Below are positions 113 through 44,383 of a stretch of DNA of 64,000 nucleotides, piece after piece; position 1 is the stretch's first letter; every line of letters starts with the position of its first letter. The stretch is from Actinopolyspora halophila DSM 43834 (GTDB lineage: Bacteria > Actinomycetota > Actinomycetes > Mycobacteriales > Pseudonocardiaceae): positions 2,769,276 through 2,833,275 of the forward strand of contig NZ_AQUI01000002.1 of NCBI RefSeq assembly GCF_000371785.1, read 5' to 3'. A program made the translations under genes and the position numbers. A model generated the notes under the pieces. It saw nothing but the letters and a program-made list of their open reading frames with translations. It ran no database searches and was not told the origin of the DNA.

Positions 113-1162
113 GTGCACGAGCGAGGATCCCGATCCCGGGACGCGGAGCACCACGGAGAGCACGGCCACGGGCACGGCCACGGCCACGGCCACGGCCACG
201 GGCACGAGGTGAATCCGAACGCGGACAAGAAGAAGCTGGTCCTCGCCCTGGTCCTGCTCGGCGGCTTCATGATCGGTGAAACCGTCGCGGCCGTGCTGGC
301 CAACTCACTGGCGCTGCTGTCGGACGCCGCGCACATGCTCACCGACACCGCCTCGATCGCCTTCGCGCTGATCGCCATGGTCCTGAGCACGTGGAGCAGC
401 TTCGGCTCCTACACCTTCGGCCTCAAACGCTCGGGAACGCTAGCGGCGTCGATCAACGGCCTGACCCTCACCGGTCTGGGTGGCTATCTGGGTTACGAGG
501 GCATCCACCGACTGATCGACCCGCCGGAGGTCGGCGGCGCCACAGTGCTGATCGTGGGCTGCACGGGAATCGTGGTCAACCTGCTGGCCACCTGGACGCT
601 GGCGAAAGCCAACCGCGACAGCCTCAACGTGGAAGGGGCCTTCCAGCACGTACTCAACGACCTCTACGCCTTCATCGGGACCACCGTCTCCGGACTCCTC
701 GTCCTGACCACGGGATTCATGCGCGCCGACGGGCTGGCCGCCCTCGTCGTCGCCGCCCTGATGCTCAAGGCCGGTGTCGGGCTGATCGGCGAGTCCACCC
801 GGGTACTGCTGCAGGCGGCGCCACGCGGCCTGGACCCGGACCGGATCCGTACCACACTGCTCTCCGAGTCGAGAGTCACCGAGATCGGTGACCTGCACGT
901 CTGGGAGGTCTCCTCCGGTTTCCCCGCCCTGTCCGCCCACGTGGTCGTGGACGATCACAGCGATCCCGACGACGTCCGCAGACAGCTGACCGAGCTGCTC
1001 TACGCGGAATTCGGCATCGATCACACGACCATCGAAGTGGCCCGTTCCTCCACCGCCCCCGCCGCGGAGAACATCTCCGCCCGCGGATGCCCACCACTGC
1101 GGAGCGACTCGTCCGCCCGAAATCTCCCGGAAGCGGAAACGAGCCGGGTCCGCGAAAGGTGA
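113..1162 (+). CDS. Cation diffusion facilitator (CDF) metal exporter
   Basis: This is a 349-residue inner-membrane metal/proton antiporter of the CzcD/ZitB type, expected to export Zn2+, Co2+ or a similar ion. Residues 13-31 are a His-Gly repeat (HGHGHG), a likely metal-binding cytoplasmic tail. TM2 carries the metal-site motif SDAAHMLTD, and TM5 carries HVLND, the second HxxxD site. After the membrane domain comes the ferredoxin-like cytoplasmic domain, with the typical stretch LHVWEVSSG. The GTG start is preceded by GGAGAG at 101-106. The C-terminal 40 residues are low-complexity and not part of the family fold. The family call is secure; the ion is not known from sequence. Confidence 0.93.
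   Translation: MHERGSRSRDAEHHGEHGHGHGHGHGHGHGHEVNPNADKKKLVLALVLLGGFMIGETVAAVLANSLALLSDAAHMLTDTASIAFALIAMVLSTWSSFGSYTFGLKRSGTLAASINGLTLTGLGGYLGYEGIHRLIDPPEVGGATVLIVGCTGIVVNLLATWTLAKANRDSLNVEGAFQHVLNDLYAFIGTTVSGLLVLTTGFMRADGLAALVVAALMLKAGVGLIGESTRVLLQAAPRGLDPDRIRTTLLSESRVTEIGDLHVWEVSSGFPALSAHVVVDDHSDPDDVRRQLTELLYAEFGIDHTTIEVARSSTAPAAENISARGCPPLRSDSSARNLPEAETSRVRER
163..207 (+). repeat. Tandem CACGGC hexamers encoding the His-Gly tail
   Basis: Six-base units (CACGGC/CACGGG) are repeated head to tail and encode alternating His and Gly near the N terminus of the CDF exporter. Such a run can change length by slippage, which would alter metal-binding capacity without breaking the frame. Confidence 0.8.
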
Positions 1163-3407: not shown

Positions 3408-3974
3408 TCAGCGCTCGCGCCCGCTGAGCGCGTCCCTGATCTTGTCCACCAGCCCCGCGCCCGGATCCAGGAGCTTGTTCGCGGGCGGCGTGTCCGGAGC
3501 GGAGGGGTGTGGTCTCGTCGGAGCCGTCTCCTTGGAATGGCGGATCTTGTTGCCGAGGTCCTGGAGCTGTTCCTCACCGCACCATCGGCGCAGCTTGGGA
3601 AAGAGGTCGTTCTCCTCGTCCTCGACGTGGTGCCGTATCGACGAGATCAGCTGCCTGGTGGTCTCGTCGAACTGCCGATCCTCGGGATCGAGCCCTTCCA
3701 GCCTTTTCATCAACTGCTCGGCCTCGGCGTGTTCGGAGATCTCGTGATCGGCGATCTCGTTCCCGTTCTCCAGCGTCTGCCTGGCCACGGGATACAGGTA
3801 CTGCTCCTCGGCCACGGAGTGCCGCACCAGCTCGGTGATGATGTGATCCACAAGGTTCCGGCGCCGCGAGGTGTCCTCGATCCCGCCCTCGAACTCCTGG
3901 AAGGCCTGTTCCACGTTCCTGTGATCCTCGATCAGCATTCCGATCATGTCGCTGTACTTGGTCGCCTGGGACAC
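3408..3974 (-). CDS. Hemerythrin HHE-domain protein (paralogue 1)
   Basis: This is a 188-residue four-helix protein that should hold a carboxylate-bridged di-iron centre, used in this family for O2/NO binding or peroxide handling. Candidate ligands are H18 (LIEDHRN), H52 and E56 (RHSVAEEQYLYP), H82 and E86 (EHAEAE), and H115/H116 with E120 (HHVEDEENDLFP). After residue 150 comes a Pro-rich tail, TRPHPSAP, and then LLDPGAGLVDKIRDAL, which also occurs in the second hemerythrin at 24036-24608. The GTG start is chosen for the ideal AGGAGG five bases upstream; a longer frame exists but lacks such a site. Confidence 0.9.
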   Translation of the reverse strand: MSQATKYSDMIGMLIEDHRNVEQAFQEFEGGIEDTSRRRNLVDHIITELVRHSVAEEQYLYPVARQTLENGNEIADHEISEHAEAEQLMKRLEGLDPEDRQFDETTRQLISSIRHHVEDEENDLFPKLRRWCGEEQLQDLGNKIRHSKETAPTRPHPSAPDTPPANKLLDPGAGLVDKIRDALSGRER

Positions 3975-4638
3975 GGGTTCCTCCTGAACTGGTTGCCGTC
4001 TCGGGAACGGGTTCGAGAATCCGGGAAAGCCCCTTCCGCGGCACGCGGTGGAAAACAGCGGCCTCACCGGCACCCCGTCCCTTCCCCGCGCGGATCCACC
4101 CGAAACCCGCGCTCACGATCGGATGAAAAATAAATACGGATCATGATCGTCGAATTCGTCCGATCTTTTCTCGCTCAACCCGCGCAATCAGCCCTCACGC
4201 GTAAAGATCAAAAAACCGACACGAATCGCGCTGCTCATGAGAGCGTGAACACATTTGGCCTCGGAATCGATATAGCAGACCCCGGCAGGCGTGTCGAGGC
4301 TCCCGGATCCGAGCCGTCGCGGATGGTTCAGGACCGCAGCAATCCGTGGACGCACCGCGAGCCGCCCAGCGTCGCAGAAGGCGGCCAGCGGTGTTTCGGC
4401 GTACTCGACAGCGACGTTGCTGGGGCCACGGCCCCAGGTCGCTTTCGCTGCGCAACACTCGCCCCCCGGGATCCCGGTGGTCACGGCCTCGGTCGTAACC
4501 GTCCGCGGAACCGTTGCCGACCACGGTCACGGGGCGGCGACCTCCTGGGAGCTCGTGCGGCAGTGTGCGCGACGATTCCTCCCCTGCGGCCGAGTGTCGC
4601 GATCACCACGGTCACACGGTCGCTGCGCTGCTGACCCC
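3975..4638. other. Long intergenic stretch without a supported gene
   Basis: The stretch near 4130-4290 is visibly richer in A and T than its surroundings. Several frames of about 100 codons exist on both strands, but none has a recognisable domain or a convincing ribosome site. It should contain the promoter of the hemerythrin gene and the end of the holin/DUF3618 pair. Confidence 0.5.
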
Positions 4639-6825: not shown

Positions 6826-8238
6826 TCAGGGCAGCAGCGGACCGTCGAGCAGCGGAAGGAGCACGCCACCACCGCCCCCCACCAGCAGGGAAAGCAGCGC
6901 GGCGAACACGGCGACGAAAGCCGCCCAACGCCCGGCGGGGCACGGTTCGTCCTCCGCGGCGGCCGGGGCGAGGACGGGAACGAGCCAGCGCAGGTAGTAG
7001 AACAGGCTGATCACGGTGTTGACCACGGCGACAACGGCCAACCAGGCGTAGCCCCCGTCGACGGCCGCGCTGAACACTTCCAGCTTGCCCAGGAAAACCG
7101 CCGTCGGTGGAGTTCCGACCAACCCCAGCAGACACACCACCAGCACCGCCGCCGCGGTGGGACGACGCCGTGCCAGACCGCGGTACTCCGCCAACCGCCG
7201 CGCGTGCGGGAAGCCTGCCACGACGGCGAAGGCGCCGAGGTTGGTCACGGCATAGGCGAGCAGGTAGAACAGCAGAGCGGGTTCGGCCAACTCGCTGCTG
7301 GCGGCGACGACCACGGCCAACAGCAGGTAACCGACCTGACTGATCGTGGAGTAGGCCAGCAGACGACGTACTTCATCCTGGAACAGCGCCGCGAGATTGC
7401 CGAGGGTCATCGACGCGGTGGCCAGCACCGCGAACAACAACGGCCAGCTCGCCGTTTCCGCGGGCAAAACCCCCTCGGCCAACCGGAACGTGGCGATCAG
7501 GCCACCGATCTTCGGCACGGTGGTCACGAAGGCCGCCACGGGCGCGGAGGCTCCTTCCGCGACGTCCGGGACCCAGAAGTGCGCGGGAACCGCGCCGATC
7601 TTGAACAGCAGACCGGCCAGCACCGTGACCCCGCCGACGGCGACGAGCGCGGACGGGGCCGCGGGCAGGCTCCGGGCCAGCGCCGCGTACTCGGTGGAAC
7701 GTCCCGCCCCGTAGAGCATCGTCACCCCGGCGATCATGGTGATCCCCAGCAGCGCCCCGAGCAGGTAGTACTTCAGCGACGCCTCCGTGCCGGGGGCGTC
7801 CGCGGAGAACCCGGCCAGGGCGTACAGCGGCACGGAGGCGAGCAGATACCCCGCCACCAGCAACAGCAGGTCCGTCGTCCCGGCCAGCACCACCGTGCCC
7901 GCACCGCCGAGCAGCACGAGCGCGTAGAACTCGGTTTCCCGGGGGTGCGAACGCACCGTGTCACCGGACAGCAGGAGCACCAGCAACGTGCCGCCCAGCA
8001 CGATCAGCCTGCCCGCCTGGGTGGCGGTGTCCACCGCGTAGCTCCCCTCGAAGGCCCGGTGGGCGACACCGTCCAACGAGGCCAGGGTGGCTCCCACACC
8101 GGCCAGGCACGCCGCCACACCGACCAGTCGCACCACCCACTGACGACCGCGCGGCAACCAGGAGCCGAGCAGCAGCCCCAGCACGGCCCCCGCGGCGGGC
8201 GCGAGTTCGGGAAGCAACACGAGCGGCCCCGCGCCCAT
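6826..8238 (-). CDS. nuoN: NuoN-like proton-pumping subunit of a minimal complex I
   Basis: This 470-residue antiporter-type membrane subunit is the last gene of the operon. It has about 14 hydrophobic segments. The channel lysine region LFKIGAVPAHFWVPD and the loop DEVRRLLAYSTISQVGYLLL are typical of NuoN. The stop of nuoM and its ATG share one base (TGATG), showing coupled translation. In complete complex I this subunit translocates protons. Here there is no NADH module in the window, so the energy input is unknown. Confidence 0.9.
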   Translation of the reverse strand: MGAGPLVLLPELAPAAGAVLGLLLGSWLPRGRQWVVRLVGVAACLAGVGATLASLDGVAHRAFEGSYAVDTATQAGRLIVLGGTLLVLLLSGDTVRSHPRETEFYALVLLGGAGTVVLAGTTDLLLLVAGYLLASVPLYALAGFSADAPGTEASLKYYLLGALLGITMIAGVTMLYGAGRSTEYAALARSLPAAPSALVAVGGVTVLAGLLFKIGAVPAHFWVPDVAEGASAPVAAFVTTVPKIGGLIATFRLAEGVLPAETASWPLLFAVLATASMTLGNLAALFQDEVRRLLAYSTISQVGYLLLAVVVAASSELAEPALLFYLLAYAVTNLGAFAVVAGFPHARRLAEYRGLARRRPTAAAVLVVCLLGLVGTPPTAVFLGKLEVFSAAVDGGYAWLAVVAVVNTVISLFYYLRWLVPVLAPAAAEDEPCPAGRWAAFVAVFAALLSLLVGGGGGVLLPLLDGPLLP

Positions 8239-9740
8239 CAACCGAACACCCCGACGAGCTCGACCGCGGCGGGTTCGATCACACCGAGCAACAGGCGCGG
8301 CAGGACCCCGAGCAAAAGCGCCACCCCCAGCAGGGGAAGTATCGCGAGGGACTCGTTCGCGCGCAGATCAGTGAAACCGCGCGCACTCCCCGGCGGGTCC
8401 GGCACCCGGGGTTCACCGAGGCAGACACGGTGCAACGCGCGCAACAGCAACGCCGCCGTGATCAGGATCCCCGGCAGGGCCAGCGCGGTCGCGACGGTGG
8501 CTGTCGCCAACCCCCCGGTCAGTATCTGGAACTCGGCGATGAACCCGGAGAACCCGGGAATGCCCAACGAGGCGAAAGCGGTCACCGCCACGGCGCCGGC
8601 GAAGACGGGAGCGAAAGCGGCCAGCCCGGAGTAGTCCTTCATGTGGTGACTGCCTCCCCGACTGTGGAGCACCCCCGCGAGCAGGAACAGCGCCCCGGTG
8701 AGCAGACCGTGGCTGACCATCTGGGTGACGGCCCCGGTCACCGCGAGCGAACGGGCCTGCTCCTGCCCGCCCGCGGCCAGCCCGGCGGCGCCCACCGCGA
8801 GCACCACGTATCCCATGTGGTTGACCGAGGTGTAGGCGACCATGCGCTTGAAGTCCTCCTGGGCGAGCGCGACCAGGGCCCCGTAGAGCACGGATACCAC
8901 TCCGAGCACCACGAACACCCAGGCGTAGCGACTCCACGTTCCGGGCAGCAGCGGCATCGCGATCCGCACGAACCCGTAGGTGCCCATCTTCAACAGCACC
9001 CCCGCGAGGATCACCGAACCGACGGCGGGAGCGTCCGTGTGCGCGGGCGGCATCCAGGTGTGGAAGGGGAAGGTGGGAGTCTTGATCAGCAGCCCGAGCC
9101 CGATCGCCGCCAGCACCGGCGCGCCGAGCGCGCCTCCTCCGGACAGCGGGTCCGACCTGGCGATGTCGACGATGTCGAAGGTGTGCGGTTCGACGGCCAG
9201 GTACAGCCCGATGAACCCGAGCAGCAGGGCCAACGACCCGAGGAAGGTGTAGAGGAAGAACTTCAGCGCCGATCCCCTGGAGTTCCCGTAACCCCACCCG
9301 GAGATCACGAAGTACATTCCCACGATGGACAGGTCGAAGTAGACGAAGAAAAGTATCAGGTCCAGTGCGGTGAACACTCCGAGGCAGACCGTCTGCAGAA
9401 ACAGGAACAGCAGCACGAACCCCTTGGTCCGGTGCGTCCCGCGCAGCGAGTAGACCGCGCAGGCCAGGAACAGTCCCGCCGTGAGCCCCAACAACGGCAG
9501 GGAGAGTCCGTCCACACCGACGTGGTAGCTCACTCCCGCTCCGGGGATCCACCGCACACGCTGCTCGAGCGCCAACCCCGTACCGGCCTCGTACCCGGTC
9601 CACGAGATGAGCACCAGAACGACATCGGTCGCGGTGGCGCACACCCAACCGGCCGTGAACACCCGGGAACCGGCGGAGACGGGGATCACGGCCAGCAGGG
9701 CGGCGACCACCAACGGCAGGAACACGATCAGACTCAGCAA
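8238..9740 (-). CDS. nuoM: NuoM-like proton-pumping subunit
   Basis: This 500-residue antiporter-type subunit starts at TTG, with GAGG seven bases upstream and only four bases after the nuoL stop. K220 in LGLLIKTPTFPFHTWMPP and the loop QEDFKRMVAYTSVNHMGY match NuoM. The residue aligned with the essential glutamate of E. coli NuoM (WEMMLVPMYF) is aspartate here, D136 in YFDLSIVGMYF, a conservative but notable change. About 14 membrane segments are present and the length is normal. Confidence 0.93.
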   Translation of the reverse strand: MLSLIVFLPLVVAALLAVIPVSAGSRVFTAGWVCATATDVVLVLISWTGYEAGTGLALEQRVRWIPGAGVSYHVGVDGLSLPLLGLTAGLFLACAVYSLRGTHRTKGFVLLFLFLQTVCLGVFTALDLILFFVYFDLSIVGMYFVISGWGYGNSRGSALKFFLYTFLGSLALLLGFIGLYLAVEPHTFDIVDIARSDPLSGGGALGAPVLAAIGLGLLIKTPTFPFHTWMPPAHTDAPAVGSVILAGVLLKMGTYGFVRIAMPLLPGTWSRYAWVFVVLGVVSVLYGALVALAQEDFKRMVAYTSVNHMGYVVLAVGAAGLAAGGQEQARSLAVTGAVTQMVSHGLLTGALFLLAGVLHSRGGSHHMKDYSGLAAFAPVFAGAVAVTAFASLGIPGFSGFIAEFQILTGGLATATVATALALPGILITAALLLRALHRVCLGEPRVPDPPGSARGFTDLRANESLAILPLLGVALLLGVLPRLLLGVIEPAAVELVGVFG

Positions 9741-9744
9741 CCGG

Positions 9745-11619
9745 TTACCTCACCAACACGACGAGCAGGGCGAGCACGGCCAGGACCGCCGCGGTCTGGG
9801 CGTAGTACTGGTGCAGCTGTCCCGTCTGGACACGCCGCGCGAACGCTCCGAGTCGACGCGCGGTTCCGCCCACGACGCGCACCAACGCCTCGATCGGGAT
9901 CTCGACACCGCGCTCGACCATCCGCGCCGACCACAGCCCCACCGCGGGAACGGCCCGGACACCCCGATCGAGCACGCGCTCGTCGAAGACGGCCAGCCCC
10001 CCTGCCAACGCGGTGACCGGCCGCACCAGCAACAGCCGGGCCAACGACTCGAACCGCGCCCACTCCGCGAGCAAGCCGCGGAGTGCTCGCGGCACGGGCA
10101 CGGGACGCTCGCCCCACCACCAGACGAAAGCCGCCACCCCGACCGCCAGCACCCCGGACAGCACCGTTTCCCGGGCAGAGGGCGAGCTCGCCCCGGACAC
10201 CCCGATCAGGCCGGACAGGTACTCCACCGCCCAGGGCAGGGTGAGCACACCGAGCACGGCCGACATCCCGACCAGCAGCACCAGCGGGGGCAACGCGCGG
10301 GCGGCGGGGGCGGTTCGCGTACCACTCGCCACCTCGTCCCGCTCGCGGGAGGAATCGTGCCGTGCGGGCAACCAGATCAGCCTGACGACCTTGACGCCGT
10401 AGACGGTGGCGAGCACGGAGGCGATCGTCGCGACGACGTGGAGGGCCGAGCCGTGTTCCGGAGCGGCTGCCGTGATCTCGCTCTTGGTCGCCCACAGCGA
10501 CAGCGGGGGGATTCCCGCCAGCGCCGCTGCGGCCACCGTGAAGGCGACCCCCACGGAACGGTACTCGCGAGCCGCTCCCCGCAGCGCGCTCAACCGCTCG
10601 GTCCCCAGCGCGGTCAGCCACGCCCCGGCCGCCAGGAACAGCGCCGACTTCGTCGCCGCGTGCGCCACGAGATGCGTCGTACCGCCCACCACGCTCCCGA
10701 CACCGGAGGCGAGAACGACGAACCCGAGCTGTGCCGCGGTGGAGGCGGCCAGCAGCTGTTTGAGATCGCGCTGGGCCACGGCCACCAGCCCGAGCACCAG
10801 CGCGGTCAGCGCACCGCTCCAGGCCACCGCCTGCTCGGCCCAGGACGTTTCCGCGAGCAGGGGACGGATGCGCAGCAGCAGATAGCCTCCGGCCGCGACC
10901 ATCGTCGCCGAGTGCAGCAGCGCCGAGACCCCGCTGGGCCCCTCCATCGCCCGGGACAGCCAGAAGTGGAACGGCAGCTGCGCCGACTTGCCCAGGGCGG
11001 CCGTCACCAACCCCGCCGCCACGAGCGTGGCCCACGGCTCTCCGACCCCGGGCAGTTCGCGGAACGCGAGGGAGTCCGCGCCCCCGGCCACGGCCGCCCC
11101 CGCCGCGAGGTACATCCCGAGATCGGCGGCTCTCGTGGTCACGAACGCCGTGCCGGCCGCACGCACCCGCCGGGAGTCGCACCACCGGAACCCGATCAGT
11201 GCCCAACTCGTAGCCCCCATGATCTCCCAGGACACGAGCAGCGGGGCCACTCCGGAGGCGGTGACCGTGCCCAGCATGGAACCGGAGAACAGCAGCATCA
11301 GCCCGGTGAACCGCGCCGGGGACTCCCGCGGTCCGACAGCGCCCCGGCAGAACCACAGCACCGCGGGCACGACCACCGCCACCGTGACGACCAGCAGCGC
11401 CGACAACCCGTCCACGGAAACCCCGGCCGCGATCCCGAGCAGCAGCGGCACCTCGGCCGAGGGGCGAACGACCGCGACCGCGAGGGCCAGCCCCAGGGTC
11501 ACCGCGGCCACCGCGAGGCCGACCGGGAAGGCGATCCGCTCTCCGCGGCGTCCCGCGCAGGACAGCACGGCCCCGGCAACGCCGGGAACCGCCAGCATCG
11601 TCCAGAGCAGACCAGCCAC
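9745..11619 (-). CDS. nuoL: NuoL-like proton-pumping subunit
   Basis: This 624-residue antiporter-type subunit retains the functional residues: E132 in SWEIMGATSWALIGF, K211 in LGKSAQLPFHFWL, and the motif AMEGPSGVSALLHSATMV. The C-terminal part contains a long hydrophilic/amphipathic stretch and a final hydrophobic helix, as expected for the lateral helix of NuoL. The GTG start lies three bases after the nuoK stop. It is the best-conserved subunit of this operon and suggests that ion pumping is retained. Confidence 0.93.
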   Translation of the reverse strand: MAGLLWTMLAVPGVAGAVLSCAGRRGERIAFPVGLAVAAVTLGLALAVAVVRPSAEVPLLLGIAAGVSVDGLSALLVVTVAVVVPAVLWFCRGAVGPRESPARFTGLMLLFSGSMLGTVTASGVAPLLVSWEIMGATSWALIGFRWCDSRRVRAAGTAFVTTRAADLGMYLAAGAAVAGGADSLAFRELPGVGEPWATLVAAGLVTAALGKSAQLPFHFWLSRAMEGPSGVSALLHSATMVAAGGYLLLRIRPLLAETSWAEQAVAWSGALTALVLGLVAVAQRDLKQLLAASTAAQLGFVVLASGVGSVVGGTTHLVAHAATKSALFLAAGAWLTALGTERLSALRGAAREYRSVGVAFTVAAAALAGIPPLSLWATKSEITAAAPEHGSALHVVATIASVLATVYGVKVVRLIWLPARHDSSRERDEVASGTRTAPAARALPPLVLLVGMSAVLGVLTLPWAVEYLSGLIGVSGASSPSARETVLSGVLAVGVAAFVWWWGERPVPVPRALRGLLAEWARFESLARLLLVRPVTALAGGLAVFDERVLDRGVRAVPAVGLWSARMVERGVEIPIEALVRVVGGTARRLGAFARRVQTGQLHQYYAQTAAVLAVLALLVVLVR

Positions 11620-11622
11620 GTG

Positions 11623-11928
11623 CTACTCCCGGAGGTCGGCGGCCATGTCGGTCATGTCCACATCCCCGGCGCGGAAAATCGCCGTGACCACCGCGAAACC
11701 GAGCGCCATCTCCACGGCCATGGCCGTGATGGCCACCAGGATCAGCACCTGCCCGCCGGTGCCGGACGGTGCCGCGAAGTGCTGGAACGCCGCCGCGGCC
11801 AGCACGATCCCGCCGATCATCAGCTCCAGCCCCATCATCAGCATCACGATCGACTGCTGCGACAGCGCCCCGTAGAGCCCCACGGCCACGAGAGCGGCCC
11901 CGAACAGCAGGAACACCTCCAAACTCAT
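11623..11928 (-). CDS. nuoK: NuoK-like membrane subunit
   Basis: This is a 101-residue three-helix subunit (MrpC-like). The two membrane glutamates needed for coupling are present, in MMGLELMIGG and ITAMAVEMALG. Its ATG overlaps the nuoJ stop by four bases (ATGA). Length and hydrophobic pattern are normal for NuoK. Confidence 0.93.
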   Translation of the reverse strand: MSLEVFLLFGAALVAVGLYGALSQQSIVMLMMGLELMIGGIVLAAAAFQHFAAPSGTGGQVLILVAITAMAVEMALGFAVVTAIFRAGDVDMTDMAADLRE

Positions 11929-12524
11929 CGGCGACCTCCCCTGCCCGTGCTCGACGAGTCCGTACCCGCTGCGCCGACCCCGCCAGGCACCGGGTCGGCG
12001 GGACGACCGCGCAGCCCGGGGCCGAACCGGTCGTAACGTCCCCGCCGCGTGGACAGCGTCACCGTCGCCAGGATCGTGGCGAACAGCACGAGACCGAGCG
12101 TCATCATCGTCGGCATCTGCGCGCCCATCAGCTCGTGCCCGAGCGCAGCGGTCGGATCGGCCGCGGGACGTCCCGCGCGCTCGGGCCAGTCCACGAGCAG
12201 GATCCCCGCCGCGAGCACGACGAAGGTGCCCACCGAGACCGACATCGCCGCGGCCTTGTTGTGATACATCGCCATGGGCATCAGCCCGGCGGGGTTCATC
12301 ATGTACATGATCATGAACACCGCCATGATCACCATTTCCATGACCATCATCAGCACGAGCACGGCACCGAGGTAGTTCAGCCCCAGCAGCATCACCTCGA
12401 AGGCGACGAACAGGAACGAGGCGAGCAGGGCGAACGTCACCCGGGCCATCGAGTCCAGCCGGAACACCAGGAACCCGAACACCACGGCGGCGACGCCGAA
12501 AACCCAGCACAGCACAGCTTCCAT
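11925..12524 (-). CDS. nuoJ: NuoJ-like membrane subunit
   Basis: This 199-residue subunit has five predicted membrane helices, including LLGLNYLGAVLVLMMVMEMV, which corresponds to the pi-bulge helix (TM3) of NuoJ. The third to fifth helices are Met-rich. A disordered tail rich in Gly, Arg and Ser follows from about residue 165. It overlaps nuoK by four bases and lies seven bases after nuoH. There is no nuoI between nuoH and nuoJ, unlike full nuo operons. Confidence 0.9.
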   Translation of the reverse strand: MEAVLCWVFGVAAVVFGFLVFRLDSMARVTFALLASFLFVAFEVMLLGLNYLGAVLVLMMVMEMVIMAVFMIMYMMNPAGLMPMAMYHNKAAAMSVSVGTFVVLAAGILLVDWPERAGRPAADPTAALGHELMGAQMPTMMTLGLVLFATILATVTLSTRRGRYDRFGPGLRGRPADPVPGGVGAAGTDSSSTGRGGRR

Positions 12525-12531
12525 GCTTCCC

Positions 12532-13455
12532 TCACCGAACCAGCACGAGAACGGAGACCAGCAGCGCCTGCACCAGCGCCACCGGGATCAGCACCATCCA
12601 GGAGAACTCGGCGAACCTGTCCATCCGCACCGTCGGGAAACGGCGAGCCAGCCAGACCAGCGCCAGCACGACCACCGCCGTCTTGACCAGGGTCCACAGC
12701 CACGGCGGCAGCACCGGCCCCTGCCCACCGCCCAGGAACAGCGGAACGGACAGCGCGACCGCGACCACGAACAGCGCCCACCGCCCGCCGAGCAGCACCA
12801 GCCGGTCCACACCGGACAGCTCGGCGGCCGCCCCACCGGCCAGGTCACCGCCGAGCGGCGCGTCGAACGGCCCCCGGAAAGCCATCGCCGCGGCGCTGAT
12901 CAGGTACACCGCGAACGCCACCGGCATCCACACCGCGAACCAGAGCCCGGACTGGGCCTCGACCACGTCCCCGACCCGGAGGCTTCCCGCGGCCGTGGCC
13001 ACCGTGATCAGCGCGAACATGTGCGGCAGCTCGTAAGCCAGCCCCTGGGCCACGAACCGGTACCCGCCGACCAGGGAGAAGACCGAGTTCGGCCCCCAAC
13101 CGGCCATCCAGACCGCGGCCCAGGCCAGGATCTCCATCGCGTTGAACCACACGACCCCCACGGCCGGATCGGCCACCGAGCGTCCACCCAGCGGCAGCAC
13201 CAGCGCCGCCGACAGCGCCGCCAGCGGAACGAGCGCGACCCCCGCGCGCCACAGCACCGGATCGGCCGCACGAGTCGTGCGCCGCTGGGTCACCAGCAAG
13301 CGGGCCGTCCCGCGCAGCGGCGCAGCGAGCCCACCCACGGCGGGCGCGCCGGCCGCGCGGGCGGCGAGCAGGGAGTCGAACGCTGCCGCGGCGAAGGTGG
13401 CGGTCCCCAGCGCCGCGGGCAGGACCACCGCCCACCACAACGGGGTGTCAGCCAC
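12532..13455 (-). CDS. nuoH: NuoH-like membrane subunit, divergent quinone-site loop
   Basis: This 307-residue subunit has the NuoH signature in the form GWGPNSVFSLVGGYRFVAQ followed by LAYELPH. The acidic cytoplasmic loop near the quinone entry, normally FDLPEAE.ELV, is replaced by FDAPLGGDLAGGAAAELSG, so several conserved glutamates are lost. This fits the degeneration of the neighbouring Q-module protein. The GTG start overlaps the upstream gene by eight bases. Around eight hydrophobic segments are visible. Confidence 0.88.
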   Translation of the reverse strand: MADTPLWWAVVLPAALGTATFAAAAFDSLLAARAAGAPAVGGLAAPLRGTARLLVTQRRTTRAADPVLWRAGVALVPLAALSAALVLPLGGRSVADPAVGVVWFNAMEILAWAAVWMAGWGPNSVFSLVGGYRFVAQGLAYELPHMFALITVATAAGSLRVGDVVEAQSGLWFAVWMPVAFAVYLISAAAMAFRGPFDAPLGGDLAGGAAAELSGVDRLVLLGGRWALFVVAVALSVPLFLGGGQGPVLPPWLWTLVKTAVVVLALVWLARRFPTVRMDRFAEFSWMVLIPVALVQALLVSVLVLVR

Positions 13456-14737
13456 CGGACACCTCCACCGGACGCGCGGAGCCCAACCCGGCCACCTGCG
13501 GATCCAGGCTGGCGACGATCAACCGCGCCCCGGACAGCTCCACTCCCCGCAGCAACCGGGGCAGCACCTCCAGCACCGGCCCGGCGCGGGCCCGCGCCGG
13601 GCCGGGCGGGGAGTCCTGCCCGGACAGCTCGGAGGTTCCGTCCAACCGGGCCAGCCCGTCCTCGATCTCGACGAGCCATTCCCGCCACCGCGCGGCGACG
13701 TCACCACCGGAACGACTCGCCCGCACCACGCTCGCCCCGAAACCGGCGCGCTCGGCCGCTTCCCGGGACAGCACCCCCAGATCGGTGGTGAGCCAGCGCA
13801 GCGTCCGGCTGGCGCGCAGTCGCCCGATCAGGCGCACGAGCCGACCGCGCACCCGTTCCCCCGGTGTTCCGGCGAGCACCTCCTCCCGGAGCCGCGCGGC
13901 CCGCGCCGCCGGGTCCGGCCAACCGGCCACCGCGAGGAAGCGGACCAGACCGTCCAAGTGCGCCGCCACGACGCGCCGGGCCCCGACGCCGTGCTCGACG
14001 CGCTGCCCGGCCGCGGCGCGACGCCACGGTTCGGTCCAGAAGTCCTCGTGCTCACCGGTGTCGTCGAGCAGCTCCACCTCGGCCTCCTGGACCACGTCGC
14101 CCTGCAGGGTCGTGCGCACGATCAGTCCCGGCGGCCAGTGCGGCAGCGCGGGGCCGAGCGGGACGTGCAACCGGTCCAGCGCGAGCCCGTCCCGATCGGG
14201 ACCGCGCTCGGCCATGGCCAACCCCGCCGGGTTCCCGCCGTGGCCGCCGTGACTACCATGGCCGCCGTGACCACCGTGGTCACCGTGATTGCCGTGCTCC
14301 CCGTGGCCACTGTGATCGCTGTGACCGCCGTGACCCTCGCGGTCCGCGGAACCGGCGTGCTCCTCGGAGGGGCGGGGTCCCCCGTGACCACCTCCCCGCT
14401 CGAGTCCGGCTCCGCGCAGCTGACCACCCCGCTCGGACAGTCCACCGACGACCCCGTCGAGCAGCTCGGCCACCCCCTCCGGGGCCGCGACGTGCACGAA
14501 CACGCGGGGCTCCGGGACCCGCGCCCACAGGGAGCACACCGCGTTCCACGACTCCGCCCCCGGACGCCCGGTGCTGATCAGCACATCGGTGTCCGCGGGG
14601 GAGGCGGCGTTCCCCCAGCCGCGCCGGCGCAGCTCGTCCTCGACGGCCAGCCGCGCCACCGTTCCCGCGGGCCCCTCCACCACCATCGCGTGCGGGGTGG
14701 AGGCGGCGAAACGCAGCAGAACCCGGCTCAGTCCCAT
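13448..14737 (-). CDS. Degenerate NuoB-NuoD-like fusion protein with a His-rich linker
   Basis: This 429-residue protein occupies the nuoB-C-D position. Residues 1-95 resemble NuoB in layout: AASPADTDVLISTGR and VPEPRVFVHVA match the NuoB blocks ASPRQADxLIVxGT and MPEPKWVISMG. The cysteines that bind cluster N2 are missing; the protein has a single Cys. Residues 117-167 hold 13 His in HGGHGDHG-type repeats. Residues 185-230 (LHVPLGPALPHWPPGLIV, then DVVQEAEVELL) resemble the start of NuoD (LGPQHPATHGVLR, then VVxxAEPHIG). The ATG lies within the end of nuoA (10-base overlap) with GGGAG upstream. It cannot carry electrons through an N2-type cluster. The role is unknown; a structural cap or metal-sensing plug is conceivable. 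Confidence 0.72.
   Translation of the reverse strand: MGLSRVLLRFAASTPHAMVVEGPAGTVARLAVEDELRRRGWGNAASPADTDVLISTGRPGAESWNAVCSLWARVPEPRVFVHVAAPEGVAELLDGVVGGLSERGGQLRGAGLERGGGHGGPRPSEEHAGSADREGHGGHSDHSGHGEHGNHGDHGGHGGHGSHGGHGGNPAGLAMAERGPDRDGLALDRLHVPLGPALPHWPPGLIVRTTLQGDVVQEAEVELLDDTGEHEDFWTEPWRRAAAGQRVEHGVGARRVVAAHLDGLVRFLAVAGWPDPAARAARLREEVLAGTPGERVRGRLVRLIGRLRASRTLRWLTTDLGVLSREAAERAGFGASVVRASRSGGDVAARWREWLVEIEDGLARLDGTSELSGQDSPPGPARARAGPVLEVLPRLLRGVELSGARLIVASLDPQVAGLGSARPVEVSGG
14230..14340 (-). repeat. Nine-base tandem repeats encoding the His-rich linker
   Basis: Imperfect 9-base units, reading GG(C/T)CAC-type codons on the minus strand, encode repeated His-Gly triplets in the NuoB/D-like protein. 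They are coding repeats with synonymous drift between units, which suggests selection on the protein rather than a recent DNA expansion. Confidence 0.7.
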
Positions 14738-15078
14738 CGCAACGCTCCCTCGCGCCACGCGTAGACCACGCCGACGAGCAGAACGCCGAGGAAGACGAAC
14801 ATCTCCACGACCGCCTTCGTCCCGACCGCGGAAACGACCAAGGTCCACGGATACATGAACAGCATTTCCATCTCGAAGGCCAGATAAACCATCGCCAGCG
14901 CGTACCAGCGCACGTGGAACCGGCAGAAGGCGTGCTCGACGGGCTCGTGTCCGGAGAGGAACTGGTCGACCGCCGCACCCGACGGCCTCACGGCCAGCGC
15001 CCACGCCAGGCCGTACACCGCACCGAGAAGCAGCACCCCCACCCCGAGCAGCACCAGCGCCGCACCGAAACCCCCCAT
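14728..15078 (-). CDS. nuoA: NuoA-like membrane subunit
   Basis: This 116-residue first gene of the operon has three membrane helices. LAFEMEMLFMYPWTLVVS corresponds to the NuoA block FDVEVVFLYPWA. The loop that normally reads FECGEEP is FLSGHEP here, so the conserved cysteine of the quinone-site loop is lost. The start may be this ATG or the GTG three bases upstream (15081); a GGGGAG site at 15092-15097 suits the GTG slightly better. A divergent promoter region lies between it and the gene at 15395. Confidence 0.9.
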   Translation of the reverse strand: MGGFGAALVLLGVGVLLLGAVYGLAWALAVRPSGAAVDQFLSGHEPVEHAFCRFHVRWYALAMVYLAFEMEMLFMYPWTLVVSAVGTKAVVEMFVFLGVLLVGVVYAWREGALRWD

Positions 15079-27999: not shown

Positions 28000-28170
28000 C
28001 GCTACGCGTCCCCAGGCTTGACATCCTCACCGCCCTGGGGGGCGGTGATTCCAGCCCGCGCGTTACGCGGCTGTAGGTTCACGGACGCTCGCCCCGCCAG
28101 CAGGCGGTGTCGTCCCTCCGGCCCGTCCGGCCGCGACATTGATCGCTGCGTTCGTATCCGCATTGCAGGA
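28000..28170 (-). ncRNA. Probable omega RNA (reRNA) with guide at the element's right end
   Basis: TnpB proteins use an RNA made from the 3' end of their own gene and the right end of the element. The terminal hairpin (28027-28034 with 28041-28048, loop 28035-28040) between GGAATC and GAGGATGTCAAG matches that architecture. The roughly 16-base guide would then be the flanking DNA at about 28001-28016. The 5' end is a guess. Confidence 0.5.
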
Positions 28171-29292
28171 GAAACCGCAGGACACGCAGACGAACTCGGC
28201 TTGGCTCTTGCGCGAGTTCTTCTCGATCCACCCGCAGCTGCTGCAACGCAGACTGGTGTACGGCGCGGGCACGTCGGTGACCCGCCCCGGTGCTTTGTCC
28301 TCGGTGCGGGCACGCAGCAGCCCCCAGCCTTGCGCCAGGATCGCCCGGTTCAACCCGGCCTTTTGCTTCACGCCCCGCCCGGGGTTGTCTTCCGTGCCCT
28401 TCGCGGAGCGGGCCATGGTGCGAATGTTGAGCTTCTCGAACCGAACCGCGTCGAACTGGCTGGCCAGCATGGTGCTGGTCTTCTCCACCCAGTCCTTCCG
28501 AACGGACGTTTCCCGAGCACGCAGCTTCGCCACTTGGGCGTACTCGTCAGCCTTGGCCTGGCTGTTCTTGGGTGCCCGAGCGGCACGGCGTTCGTGCTTG
28601 CGGCGTTTCGCCCGTTCCTTGCTGGACGGCTGCGGGCAGTTCAACGTCTGACCGTCGTGCAGCGCGGCGGTGATTTCCACACCGCGGTCGACCCCGGCGG
28701 TGTTCCCGTTGCCGGGTTTGGCGACCGGTTCGGGCTGGATCGCGAACGCCACGTGCCATTGCCCGTTCTTCCAGGTCACCCGGCAGGTTTTCGCGTGTGG
28801 CAGCTGCCGCACCGTGAGCCGGAACCGCACCCATCCGGCGCTGGGGAGTTTCACCTGTGCCCACCGGCGGTTGAGTTTCTGCACCGCCACCCGGCGGGTC
28901 ATGACCTGCTTGCCGGTGCGGTTCAGCTTCGGGCTGCCGTCCGCTTCGTAGTCGGGTTCCCGGCCGCCTCCGATGATTCGGAAGCCTTCGTTGCGGTATT
29001 TCTTCCGCCACGTCGGCTCGCCGAACCCGGACTGGAAGAACGCGGTGCGGGCATGGTGATAGTCCTTCAACGCCTGCTGGCACACGTCCGAGTTCCAGGC
29101 GGCGAACCAATCGTTCTCGGAGCGCGCCTCGGTGAGCTGGCGGCACTGCTCGGCCCAGCCTGGTCCTGACCTGCGGCCGGGTTGCCAGTGGGAGTGCTGT
29201 TCGACGGCGAGGTTCCACACGAACCGGGCTGCTGCGCAGTGCTCGGTGAGCACGCGTTCTTGCTCGGGGGTCGGGTAGAGCCGAAACCGCAC
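28063..29292 (-). CDS. tnpB: TnpB RNA-guided nuclease (OrfB)
   Basis: This 409-residue protein carries all three RuvC motifs: D in GVDRGVEITAAL, E in VRFEKLNIRTMAR and D in CNADTNAAINVAAG. The zinc-finger pairs CSSCGW and CVSCGF lie between motifs II and III. The N-terminal LYPTPEQERVLTEHCAAARFVWN is the usual RNA-binding start. The GTG start has GGAGG eight bases upstream. It is likely active in guided cleavage of the empty donor site. Confidence 0.93.
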   Translation of the reverse strand: MRFRLYPTPEQERVLTEHCAAARFVWNLAVEQHSHWQPGRRSGPGWAEQCRQLTEARSENDWFAAWNSDVCQQALKDYHHARTAFFQSGFGEPTWRKKYRNEGFRIIGGGREPDYEADGSPKLNRTGKQVMTRRVAVQKLNRRWAQVKLPSAGWVRFRLTVRQLPHAKTCRVTWKNGQWHVAFAIQPEPVAKPGNGNTAGVDRGVEITAALHDGQTLNCPQPSSKERAKRRKHERRAARAPKNSQAKADEYAQVAKLRARETSVRKDWVEKTSTMLASQFDAVRFEKLNIRTMARSAKGTEDNPGRGVKQKAGLNRAILAQGWGLLRARTEDKAPGRVTDVPAPYTSLRCSSCGWIEKNSRKSQAEFVCVSCGFSCNADTNAAINVAAGRAGGTTPPAGGASVREPTAA

Positions 29293-42593: not shown

Positions 42594-42959
42594 TCAGTGG
42601 TGTCGCCGGTGCAGCGCGGACAGCTCCACCGCTTCGGCCATGGCCCTGGCCCCCGCGTCGTTGGGGTGCAGCCCGTCACCGCTGTCGTACTCGGGGCGCA
42701 GCCGCAGCGGGTCCTCGGGTTGGGCGGTGGCCGCGGCGAAGTCCACCACACCGTCGAAGAGCTCGGTGCCGCGGATCCAAGCGTTGACCCGCTGCCGGGT
42801 GCGCTCCCGCTCGGGCGTCCACACCACCGAGCCCTCGAACTGGGTGAGCGTGCCGCCGAGCACCCGCATCCCGTCGCGGTGGGCTCGCCGCACGAGCTGC
42901 TTGTAGCCCTCGATGAGCTGGGCGGCCGTGGCGTCGTCGGAGATGTCGTTGATCCGTTC
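42594..42959 (-). pseudogene. SGNH/GDSL hydrolase, 3' fragment
   Basis: This is the C-terminal part of a secreted SGNH lipase/esterase: ERINDISDDATAAQLIEGY, then MRVLGGTLTQFEG and the catalytic Asp/His block YDSGDGLHPNDAGA. It is separated from its N-terminal part (44701-45656) by two mobile elements. It is read in frame from the TnpB gene, giving a fused frame. About 25-30 codons expected between the two fragments are missing. Confidence 0.82.
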
Positions 42960-44383
42960 AGGAAATGTGCGAAAATGTTCCTGAGCTGTCGCCTTGCGAC
43001 GCAGCGTTGGCCCCGGTCCGGCGGGTCGGGGTCTTCCCGTGGCGGTACCCGTTGCCAGCATGGCTGGTCTTACGTGGGTTTCCAGCGGGCTCGTTTTTCG
43101 TCGCCCACCAACTGTGGGAGGACGCCAGGCCCGCGAGGTTGCGGCCGCGTTGAGATCGCGATCTGCGGTGTGGCCGCAGTGATCGCAAGTGAAGACACGC
43201 TGGCTCAGGCGCAGTTTGGCTTTCACCGTGCCGCAGCCGTGGCAGGTCTTCGAGCTGGGGTAGAACCGGTCGGCCACCACGAGCTGTCGGTGTGACCAGG
43301 TGGTTTTGTAGTCGAGTTGCCGTCGCAGCTCGCTCATGCCCACGTCGGCGATCGAACGGGCCAGTCGCCGGTTGCGCACCATCCCGGCCACGTGCAGGTC
43401 TTCGACGACTATGGTGTCGAACTCGTCCACCAGGCGGGTGGAGAGCTTGTGCAGCCCGTCGCGGCGGGCATTGGCGATGGCGGTGTACAGCGTGGCGATA
43501 CGGACTTGCGTACGACGCCACCGGTTCGAGGCTTTCCGCTCGGTGCGCCGGTCGGGGCCACAGCGTCGGGCGGCCTGGCGCTGCAACCGGAGCAGTTCCC
43601 GCTGTGCGACTTCGAGGTGTTTCGGGTTGACGATGACCTCGCCGGTGGACAACACCGCCAGGTGCTTCACTCCGAGATCCACGCCGACCGTGCCGCCACA
43701 CGTTGCCGAGGCCGGTTCGGAACGCTCGATTTCCACGGAGAACGACACGTGCCACCGGCCGCGCCGGAAGCTCACGGTGGCCGAACGGATGCGGGCCGTG
43801 CCGCGCTCGACGTGCCGGGCGAGCTTGCGGGTTGATTCGTGGGTGCGCACCAGCCCGATGCGGGGCAGTCTCACATGTCGACGGTCAACATCGGAGAGCC
43901 CGAACGATCCGGTTGAAACCCGGAAGGACCAAGTGCTGCGCTTCGACTTGAACCGAGGGAATCCGAGTGCGCGCCCGCCGCGTTTGCCGGCGCGGGACTT
44001 GTTCCAGTTGTCCAACGCCCTGGACAAGTTCGCCAACCCGGAAGCGTAGGCCTCCTTCGAGTTCTCGCCCCACCAAGGGGCTACCTCGCCCTTGACAGCG
44101 TTGAACGCCTTCCGCAACGAGTAGGCCGACCAGTTCCAGCTCGGAGTGAGCTCGTCCTCGACGATGCCGTAGGACCGTTCCGCGCTGCGCTGGTCCAGCA
44201 CCGCCTTCATCCGGCCCAAGCCCCAATTGTAGGCGAACCGCGCCGCCCCACAGTGCGACGACAACATGGCCCGTTGGTGCTCGGTGGGGTCCAGAGCGAA
44301 CTGATACGCCTGCACCACCGTGGCCATGCTGTACACCTCCCTACGTGCGACTCGGCTGATCACAGTCTGTCATGCCTGGATAC
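42958..44383 (-). mobile_element. TnpB-only IS200/IS605 (IS1341-type) element
   Basis: This element of about 1.4 kb has tnpB but no tnpA. The right end lies at the junction with the SGNH fragment, where CAGGAA/TTCCTG (42959-42964 and 42978-42983) form a hairpin. The left edge is not sharp; it lies between the tnpB ribosome site and the IS30 remnant. Confidence 0.6.
42960..44327 (-). pseudogene. tnpB: TnpB, frameshifted near the C terminus
   Basis: The protein has RuvC I D in GVDLGVKHLAVL, RuvC II E in VVEDLHVAGMV, zinc-finger pairs CHGCG and CDHCG, and RuvC III D in TADRDLNAAAT. Directly after motif III one base appears to be lost (around 43141-43147). The other frame continues with the expected family tail NLAGLASSHSWWATKNEPAG, then AGNGYRHGKT, and would stop at 42958. 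In the present frame it reads through the element end into the SGNH fragment. The catalytic core is complete, so activity is not excluded. ATG with GGGAGG. Confidence 0.8.

What the first reader, a model, noticed from the sequence alone, without database searches (positions are those of the whole stretch)
6826..15078. A complex I-like membrane arm with no recognisable electron-input module
The operon encodes A-(B/D-like)-H-J-K-L-M-N in the normal order but has no nuoE, F, G or I and no normal nuoB, C or D. The pumping subunits L, K and N keep their key charged residues, while NuoA has lost its loop cysteine, NuoH has lost the acidic quinone loop, and the Q-module protein has lost its Fe-S ligands. 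From memory, similar second nuo clusters exist in streptomycetes without an assigned function. The pattern suggests a machine that still moves ions but is driven in another way, or that works as an Mrp-like antiporter.
Basis: partly seen in the sequence, partly recalled or inferred. Interest (0 to 1): 0.8.

Follow-up and report, generated by a model that had tools for sequence, protein, structure and literature searches.

The report
Copper-linked complex I without electrons
This is a stripped-down relative of the respiratory proton pump complex I that has lost the parts that handle electrons and often turns up among copper-resistance genes in related bacteria, so it may be an ion-driven machine that handles copper rather than a respiratory enzyme.

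Summary
Confirmed: eight packed genes, nuoA-(B/D fusion)-H-J-K-L-M-N, window 15078-6826, minus strand. B/D is a NuoB-NuoD relative without the paired cysteines of cluster N2 or the quinone histidines. The genome holds one ordinary complex I and a second copy of this module. 71 of 80 fetched actinobacterial loci show all eight genes. Seven of 50 module-bearing genomes show no complex I, so borrowed electron-input subunits are not needed.

Papers describe what is almost certainly this operon as 'partial NDH-1' (nuoAHJKLMN), for marine or osmotic adaptation. New here is a metal signature. NuoJ has eleven methionines (each in at least 83 of 85) and an invariant glutamate in and after its third helix. 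The B/D linker is mostly His-rich, or in a basal lineage a heavy-metal-binding domain.

Best reading: an electron-free, ion-gradient-driven copper (soft-metal) homeostasis complex. Metal transport is inferred, not shown, and the 64-kb window itself holds none of the copper markers.

The parts
14728..15078 (-). NuoA-like subunit (116 aa, ATG at 15078)
   Evidence: Pfam PF00507 E 5.4e-25; loop Cys absent, acidic pair of TM2 kept, EM.FMYPW conserved in the family
13448..14737 (-). B/D fusion protein (429 aa): NuoB-like N-part (1-103), His-rich linker (about 105-170), NuoD-like C-part (178-415)
   Evidence: no Pfam hit; profile vs NuoB Prob 92.8, E 3.9e-7 over residues 43-83, vs NuoD only Prob 2.8; AlphaFold model pLDDT 83, pTM 0.81 whose 50 listed Foldseek hits are complex I/NDH 49-kDa-type subunits plus one formate hydrogenlyase chain; basal relative L170 has Oxidored_q6 (1.9e-4), HMBD and Complex1_49kDa in one chain
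14228..14425 (-). stretch encoding the disordered, His-rich linker (residues about 105-170)
   Evidence: read; pLDDT under 50 in the model; at least 5 His in 40 residues in 59 of 78 family B/D proteins
12532..13455 (-). NuoH-like subunit (307 aa)
   Evidence: Pfam PF00146 E 8.2e-49; E216/E218 lost, E157/E228 kept
11925..12524 (-). NuoJ-like subunit (199 aa) with Met-rich third helix
   Evidence: Pfam PF00499 E 9e-9; M59 M64 M67 M71 M75 M76 M84 M86, E63, H88 in 85/85, M60 84/85, M73 and M82 83/85; helix 50-76 in the model
11623..11928 (-). NuoK-like subunit (101 aa)
   Evidence: Pfam PF00420 E 2.6e-11; E36/E72 kept
9745..11619 (-). NuoL-like subunit (624 aa)
   Evidence: Pfam PF00361 E 7.2e-46; seven of eight listed positions kept in the window, D400 is Ser
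8238..9740 (-). NuoM-like subunit (500 aa)
   Evidence: TIGR01972 E 1.4e-135, over its cut-off; E144 is Asp in 80/80
6826..8241 (-). NuoN-like subunit (471 aa)
   Evidence: TIGR01770 E 6.8e-96, just under its cut-off (322.1 of 332.6 bits), Pfam PF00361 over cut-off; TM5 Glu replaced by Leu in 78/79, H305 by Gln in 79/79

Best explanation
A membrane complex descended from complex I that no longer handles electrons. A fused B/D protein without the known redox ligands caps the membrane arm A-H-J-K-L-M-N where the iron-sulfur/quinone module used to sit. It takes part in copper (possibly other soft-metal) homeostasis. Proposed mechanism: cytosolic metal is collected by the His/Met-rich or HMBD linker of B/D (or, in one lineage, a His-rich NuoJ tail) and handed to the former quinone/E-channel region, where the Met-rich third helix of NuoJ, with its invariant Glu, passes or senses Cu(I). 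Proton (or sodium) flow through the antiporter-like subunits powers this, that is, complex I run backwards with a metal in place of the electrons. Shown here: gene content, loss of redox ligands, genomes in which no complex I was found, the conserved Met/Glu/His signature, a metal-binding domain in relatives, copper-gene neighbourhood of relatives. Inferred: assembly into one complex, direction of ion flow, that metal is the transported or sensed species, and export rather than supply.
For: No redox: CC pair in 0 of 53 rows, quinone HPSTHG motif replaced in 53/53; no NuoD and no canonical NuoH found in 7 of 50 module-bearing genomes, four of which also lack any PF01058 match. Maintained: 71 of 80 loci show all eight genes; dN/dS 0.24-0.47 against L176 and 0.24-0.40 against the second copy. 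Metal signature: M59/64/67/71/75/76, E63, then M84, M86, H88 of NuoJ in 85/85; Met content of J 9.5% against 3.6% in canonical J, while H, L, M, N have less than canonical; Pfam HMBD inside B/D of L170 and its motif in 9 of 11 loci of that family; His-rich NuoJ tails in 5 of the 6 deepA rows shown. Neighbourhood: any of seven copper-type markers in 44 of 80 loci (23 of 32 genus labels; 39 of 75 without the five loci that supplied exemplars) against 1 of 38 controls; csoR-copZ-copA-nuoA...N on one strand in L084 and L108, csoR directly before nuoA in L125 and L161; RefSeq-annotated plasmids: HMA-P-type ATPase-nuoA...N in Curtobacterium pC1a, multicopper oxidase-nuoA...N in Arthrobacter FB24; the four neighbouring ATPases tested pass the copper-type cut-off TIGR01511. 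One-locus-per-genus Pfam tally without choice of markers: E1-E2_ATPase 5, HMA 5, DUF305 4 of 120 flanking proteins; each of these in at most one of 116 control proteins.
Against: 36 of 80 loci have no marker in the DNA held, among them both Streptosporangium, both Mycobacterium and three of four Actinopolyspora loci. No marker lies anywhere in the 64-kb window or in the stretches L175 and L176 around same-genus copies; L011 has only the multicopper oxidase. The second copy in the genome stands next to a Cd/Pb-type CmtR regulator and a CDF transporter, and the four ATPases also pass the cadmium-family cut-off TIGR01512 at lower scores, so the metal need not be copper. Markers were chosen after looking at neighbours; the HMA exemplar can also match CopA's own HMA domain; loci of one genus are not independent. 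The canonical-complex-I control (no marker at 20 loci) is weak because complex I fills most of those stretches. 19 of 78 B/D proteins are not His-rich, among them L084 and L108, which have the clearest copper operon. Eight conserved Met/Glu residues of the helix do not form a significantly one-sided face (2465 of 20000 random sets as good); only a five-Met subset picked afterwards does. No expression, binding or transport data exist here.
Confidence: 0.45

Rival explanations
1. A proton or sodium translocator for life in salt (the published view of the nuoAHJKLMN 'partial NDH-1' operon), in effect an Mrp-like antiporter built from complex I parts.
For: Published association with marine and osmotolerant actinomycetes (PMC3314556, PMC4018334, PMC6002675, PMC6676996, passages read); L, K and most M charged residues conserved; several loci are from genera known for halophiles (recalled).
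Against: Also in Arthrobacter, Brevibacterium, Dietzia, Mycobacterium and a glacier Gordonia; the genome already has two Mrp-type loci (my reading); the clade's constant novelties are Met/His features and, in over half of the loci, copper neighbours, which salt does not explain; NuoN TM5 Glu is lost. PMC6676996 itself notes the operon in a strain from copper-rich mine fluid.
Confidence: 0.2
2. A hybrid partner of the ordinary complex I, borrowing its NADH and Fe-S modules to make an alternative respiratory pump.
For: 40 of 50 module-bearing genomes have a strong NuoD match, and one more a canonical NuoH; a hybrid machinery was voiced for Streptomyces nuo2 (PMC9239103, passage).
Against: In 7 of 50 genomes no NuoD or canonical NuoH was found; the module has its own B/D cap, which would occupy the docking site (inference), and lacks the quinone-site residues.
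Confidence: 0.07
3. A metal-responsive accessory that does not move metal: for example a B/D-gated proton leak or pH/PMF stabiliser switched on under copper stress, or a machine that supplies copper to extracytoplasmic copper enzymes.
For: Location beside copper genes including multicopper oxidase and DUF305; metal-binding linkers could be sensors.
Against: A mere leak does not need all three antiporter-like subunits conserved, nor a strictly conserved Met-rich helix inside NuoJ (inference).
Confidence: 0.2
4. A decaying remnant without function.
For: One copy in Actinopolyspora biskrensis (L048/L040) is broken.
Against: dN/dS well under 1, a second copy in this genome, 71 of 80 loci with all eight genes, NuoH matches on 13 plasmids.
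Confidence: 0.02

Closest known systems
'Partial NDH-1' / nuoAHJKLMN operon of Salinispora, Kocuria flava S43 and marine Streptomyces (PMC3314556, PMC6002675, PMC6676996, PMC4018334, PMC8622039; passages read)
   Same: Same order, nuoA then a 'hypothetical protein' then nuoH, J, K, L, M, N (PMC6676996 wording). Almost certainly the same family, though I did not fetch those very loci.
   Different: In the passages read, the papers do not identify the hypothetical protein as a B/D fusion, do not note lost redox ligands or the NuoJ signature, and propose osmotic or marine adaptation.
Streptomyces nuo2 (SCO4599-4608; nuoABCHIJKLMN)
   Same: Second, incomplete nuo cluster with membrane arm; function unclear (PMC9239103, passage).
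   Different: The two clusters of this make-up that I read (L159, L160) have NuoB, NuoC and NuoI matches, ordinary NuoJ (Y59, G61) and NuoN E133 and lie outside the module clade in the NuoM tree.
Respiratory complex I (NDH-1)
   Same: All seven membrane subunits homologous; B/D fold matches the 49-kDa subunit.
   Different: No NADH or Fe-S subunits in the operon, no N2 cysteine pair, no quinone His; B and D fused and much reduced.
Mrp Na+/H+ antiporter
   Same: Antiporter-like L/M/N and K-type subunits, no electron input.
   Different: Mrp has no NuoA, H or B/D parts (recalled); the module has none of the extra small Mrp subunits among its eight genes.
Copper resistance islands (copA-copZ-csoR, multicopper oxidase, DUF305)
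   Same: The module sits in or beside such genes in 44 of 80 loci.
   Different: No description of a complex I-derived component in such islands was seen in ten literature searches (listings) or in the passages of the papers opened.

Membership tests
Complex I (NDH-1) | Membrane subunits A, H, J, K, L, M, N | tested here: met
   Pfam matches over cut-off for all seven
Complex I (NDH-1) | NuoB cysteines for cluster N2 | tested here: not met
   CC pair in 0 of 53 B/D rows; no Cys among invariant columns. A Cys occurs at position 56 in 32 of 53 rows, inside the stretch aligned to NuoB VAG, not at a known ligand (recalled)
Complex I (NDH-1) | NuoD quinone motif HPSTHG | tested here: not met
   LPxWPxG in 53 of 53
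Complex I (NDH-1) | NADH module E/F/G | tested here: not met
   absent from the eight-gene operon; no PF01512 (NuoF-type) match in 6 of the 7 genomes without complex I
Mrp antiporter | Mrp-specific small subunits in the operon | tested here: not met
   none of the eight genes matches such a subunit; what defines Mrp is recalled
Group 4 hydrogenase / Ehr complexes | NiFe or Fe-S cysteines in the B and D parts | tested here: not met
   no invariant Cys; only three columns with 5 or more Cys
Streptomyces nuo2 | NuoB, NuoC and NuoI present | tested here: not met
nuoAHJKLMN 'partial NDH-1' operon | order A-hypothetical-H-J-K-L-M-N | tested here: met
   description in PMC6676996
Copper homeostasis determinant | genomic association with copper genes | tested here: met
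   for the family: 44/80 against 1/38, annotated plasmids; not for the window itself
Copper homeostasis determinant | recognised metal-binding domain in the complex | tested here: inconclusive
   HMBD in B/D of basal relatives; only a His-rich linker in the window protein, no Pfam domain
Copper homeostasis determinant | copper-induced expression, metal phenotype, transport | not testable with these tools
   no expression or laboratory data available

The most novel reading that the evidence does not exclude
A proton-motive-force-driven copper (soft-metal) pump made from the complete membrane arm of complex I: the redox module has been replaced by a metal-collecting cap, and the Met-rich third helix of NuoJ forms the metal path through the former E-channel. 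Complex I's coupling machinery would then have been re-used in reverse for metal transport.
Probability: 0.35. Interest if true: 0.95.

Novelty: new variant of a known kind. Interest (0 to 1): 0.8.

Why it matters
How complex I couples its Q-site to distant ion channels is a long-standing question. A natural complex that keeps the coupling arm but has discarded electrons, quinone site and iron-sulfur clusters would let the arm be studied alone and would show that its energy flow can serve another substrate. It would also add a new kind of component to bacterial copper homeostasis, one now annotated as NADH dehydrogenase or credited to salt adaptation, and one that is also found on plasmids of actinobacteria.

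Tried and rejected
Rejected: (1) identity with Streptomyces nuo2, by gene content and residues of two such clusters. (2) Ordinary complex I with spare B or D subunits elsewhere in this genome, by whole-genome PF01058/PF00346 searches. (3) Kineococcus L116 as a complex-I-free genome: one search found no NuoD, but one search found a full canonical NuoH on another contig (bases 1606-2523), so I dropped it (8 of 50 became 7 of 50). Humibacter L055 and Cryobacterium L082 have only weak, hydrogenase-4-like B/D/L sets; they are not counted among the seven. Dietzia L110 lacks NuoD but Dietzia L070 scores one on a 7.9-kb contig. Completeness of these genomes is not given by the tool. (4) A one-sided Met face of the NuoJ helix using eight conserved residues: not significant. 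(5) Immediate upstream gene statistics: my ORF picker is noisy in G+C-rich DNA; 14 of 69 loci gave a marker as the nearest upstream gene. (6) NuoD homology by profile comparison alone: Prob 2.8; it rests on the model (query TM-scores only 0.33-0.42) and on the basal relative. (7) The tally of 232 of 396 phylum genomes is not a count of the module: most of those matches are weak hits over the NuoB-like core, as canonical NuoB gives. (8) A literature link between this operon and copper: none seen in ten searches. Spero et al. 2015 (recalled) was not held.
Full report
What is there. On the minus strand, window 15078 to 6826, eight open frames with overlaps or gaps of a few bases encode NuoA, a 429-aa protein, NuoH, J, K, L, M and N. 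Pfam names seven of them over its cut-offs; the 429-aa protein has no Pfam match and only a hint of NuoB in NCBIfam (E 0.06). The genome is 5.35 Mb in two contigs, 99.75% complete. It has one ordinary complex I with the single PF01058 and PF00346 matches of the genome, two Mrp-type loci (my reading), and a second copy of the same cluster at C2:3.63 Mb whose 429-aa homologue is 55% identical. The nearest named relatives are Actinopolyspora.

The B/D protein. Seventeen, then 53, homologues align. The N-part keeps the NuoB core SPADAD-LVV-G...VPxPR; profile comparison with canonical NuoB gives Prob 92.8, E 3.9e-7, and the family profile in turn picks out canonical NuoB weakly (own NuoB at E 3.4e-5). 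Comparison with NuoD gives only Prob 2.8, but the AlphaFold model (pLDDT 83, pTM 0.81) finds complex I/NDH 49-kDa-type subunits as 49 of its 50 listed PDB matches and a formate hydrogenlyase chain as the other, best E 7.6e-7, with modest query TM-scores of 0.33-0.42. A basal relative, L170, carries Oxidored_q6 (1.9e-4, below its bit cut-off), HMBD heavy-metal-binding (5.4e-12) and Complex1_49kDa (2.8e-14) in one chain. So it is a fused, shrunken NuoB-NuoD. A CC pair occurs in 0 of 53 rows, and HPSTHG of NuoD has become LPxWPxG in 53 of 53.

Spread. One scan of genome contigs found 241 relatives and returned the best 80. By BLAST of the window proteins 71 of 80 show all eight genes; eight of the other nine are cut by contig ends, and one, in A. 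biskrensis, is broken. Of 100 genomes searched, the window's own included, 22 match the B/D protein, two of them only weakly in short frames. In a 396-genome sample of the phylum, deeper relatives with the same eight-gene set appear in other families; in L166 BLAST and my ORF search missed the B/D gene, which the profile finds there. A NuoM tree puts module, deepA (L161-L169) and deepB (L170, L171) on one side of a branch with 94/91 support, just under the program's star, apart from canonical complex I and the nuo2 pair. Window NuoH matches 13 plasmid records of PLSDB; in the five that I opened it lies in an A-hypothetical-H-J-K-L-M-N set (in one, Pseudonocardia, the second gene is annotated short). 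dN/dS is 0.24-0.47 against L176 and 0.24-0.40 against the second copy.

It lives without complex I. Of 50 module-bearing genomes searched (50 of the 80 loci given, chosen by me for diversity), 8 have no NuoD match and 5 no PF01058 match. A check with PF00146 and PF01512 on ten of the 50, these eight included, showed a canonical NuoH (398 bits) in Kineococcus, which I dropped. The remaining seven are two strains of Arthrobacter echini, two further Arthrobacter, a Paenarthrobacter, Dietzia sp. NCCP-2495 and Brevibacterium antiquum; their NuoH matches (one each, two in A. echini) score 145-159 bits, like the window's (167). Four of the seven have no PF01058 protein at all; the other three have one that matches only from position 36 or 37 on, in a frame of about 360 aa, as a hydrogenase small subunit would (inference). 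One of the seven has a PF01512 match. Drafts can miss genes and completeness is not reported, but two strains of one species agree. Against this: a second Dietzia (L070) does score a NuoD, on a 7.9-kb contig.

Channel residues. Against E. coli positions (canonical controls from 19 loci): NuoL E144, D178, K229, H254, K305, K342 are kept in 75/75; NuoK E36 84/84; NuoM K265 and E407 80/80 with E144 replaced by Asp in 80/80; NuoN K247 and K395 79/79, but E133 is Leu in 78/79 and H305 Gln in 79/79. In canonical controls NuoN K247 is Leu and H305 Asn in 3 of 19. H305 is Gln in the nuo2 pair too. NuoH loses E216 and E218 and keeps E157 and E228. The NuoA loop Cys is also absent in E. coli.

The metal signature. 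NuoJ helix 3 (residues 50-76 in the model, pTM only 0.55; listed model matches are NuoJ/ND6/NdhG chains, best E 2.3e-3) and the residues after it read LMMVMEMVIMAVFMIMYMMNPAGLMPMAMYH in the window. M59, E63, M64, M67, M71, M75, M76, M84, M86 and H88 are invariant in 85 of 85, M60 in 84, M73 and M82 in 83. The canonical Tyr59 and Gly61 (19/19 in controls) are gone. Met content is 9.5% in J against 3.6% in canonical J, and raised in K and A, while H, L, M and N have less than canonical (canonical A from 4 loci only). The B/D linker is His-rich in 59 of 78; in deepA the His run sits on the NuoJ tail instead, in 5 of the 6 rows shown; in the deepB family 9 of 11 loci have the CPMHPEV...CxxCGM-type heavy-metal motif in B/D. 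Eight conserved helix residues together are not significantly one-sided.

The neighbourhood. Clustering flanking ORFs of 96 loci without labels first showed, besides spurious ORFs, P1B-ATPase (21 loci), DUF305 (16), CsoR (15) and multicopper oxidase (11) as the commonest families (identities). With exemplars taken from those clusters, any of seven copper-type markers occurs in 44 of 80 loci, each held to at most 10 kb on either side of the B/D match (23 of 32 genus labels; 39 of 75 if the five loci that supplied exemplars are left out), against 1 of 38 20-kb stretches from genomes of the same set; two or more in 31 against 1; Fisher p 3.6e-9. The markers were picked after seeing the neighbours and loci are related, so the p-value flatters. 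No marker lies at 20 canonical complex I loci, a weak control because complex I fills most of that DNA and one locus held only 1,950 bases. A Pfam tally with one locus per genus label (28) and no marker choice gives the same families, with 120 flanking proteins against 116 of 152 drawn control proteins; the control set is weighted to ribosomal regions. In L084 and L108 csoR-copZ-copA-nuoA-BD-H-J-K-L-M-N lie on one strand; in L125 and L161 csoR precedes nuoA. RefSeq annotation of five plasmids looked at: four have heavy-metal or copper genes near the module, Gordonia p2 does not. The four neighbouring P-type ATPases tested score over the copper-type cut-off, and lower but also over the cadmium-family cut-off; the CsoR tested matches RicR below its cut-off. 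The second copy of this genome has a multicopper oxidase and a CmtR (Cd/Pb) regulator with a CDF transporter nearby. The 64-kb window holds none of the markers, nor do the stretches around two same-genus copies.

Mechanism. Without electron donor, cluster or quinone site the likeliest energy source is an ion gradient (inference). The conserved antiporter-like subunits, NuoK glutamates and NuoH/A/J core can relay it to the old Q-site region, where this clade has placed a metal-binding cap and a Met-rich helix. I therefore favour ion-driven copper (soft-metal) handling, most likely export. Involvement in metal homeostasis I hold at about 0.7, transport itself at about 0.35-0.45.

What is known. 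What is almost certainly this operon has been in print since 2012 as a partial NDH-1 (nuoAHJKLMN) credited to marine or osmotic adaptation (PMC3314556, PMC4018334, PMC6002675, PMC6676996, PMC8622039; passages read), with the second gene as 'hypothetical protein' (PMC6676996). That paper notes it in a strain from copper-rich mine fluid and still reads it as osmotic. PMC8622039 separates it from nuoABCHIJKLMN, the nuo2 type. In none of the ten searches (listings) or the passages opened did I see it linked to copper.

Noticed in passing
L011 (own genome C2:3620001-3640000), about 7.4-15.6 kb: Second copy of the module in the same genome; a CmtR-type (Cd/Pb) regulator and a CDF transporter lie upstream and a multicopper oxidase downstream.
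   Followed up: partly
L048 / L040 (Actinopolyspora biskrensis): A broken copy: internal stop in the B/D gene, and nuoL and nuoM not found.
   Followed up: no
window 6826-15078 against L175 (same-genus genome G002): A, H, J, K and, apart from gaps, B/D are nearly identical (dS up to 0.025) but L, M, N differ by about 10% (dS 0.16-0.22), suggesting a recombination border between K and L.
   Followed up: no
G494, G495, G502, G511, G519 and others: Several genomes carry a second NuoD-like match that falls into two pieces (profile 2-170 and 197-271), apart from complex I.
   Followed up: no
window 113-1162: CDF-family transporter with a poly-HG N-terminal run, about 5.7 kb past nuoN.
   Followed up: partly
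window 3408-4073: Hemerythrin-like protein by my reading of the translation; not searched against a library.
   Followed up: no
window 28063-29292 and 42594-44363: Two ORFs that read like IS605/IS200 OrfB (TnpB) transposase-type proteins (my reading).
   Followed up: no
L177 and L178 (Humibacter, Cryobacterium): Clusters with NuoB-, NuoD- and NuoL-like genes resembling group 4 hydrogenase or related complexes in genomes where no strong NuoD match was found.
   Followed up: no
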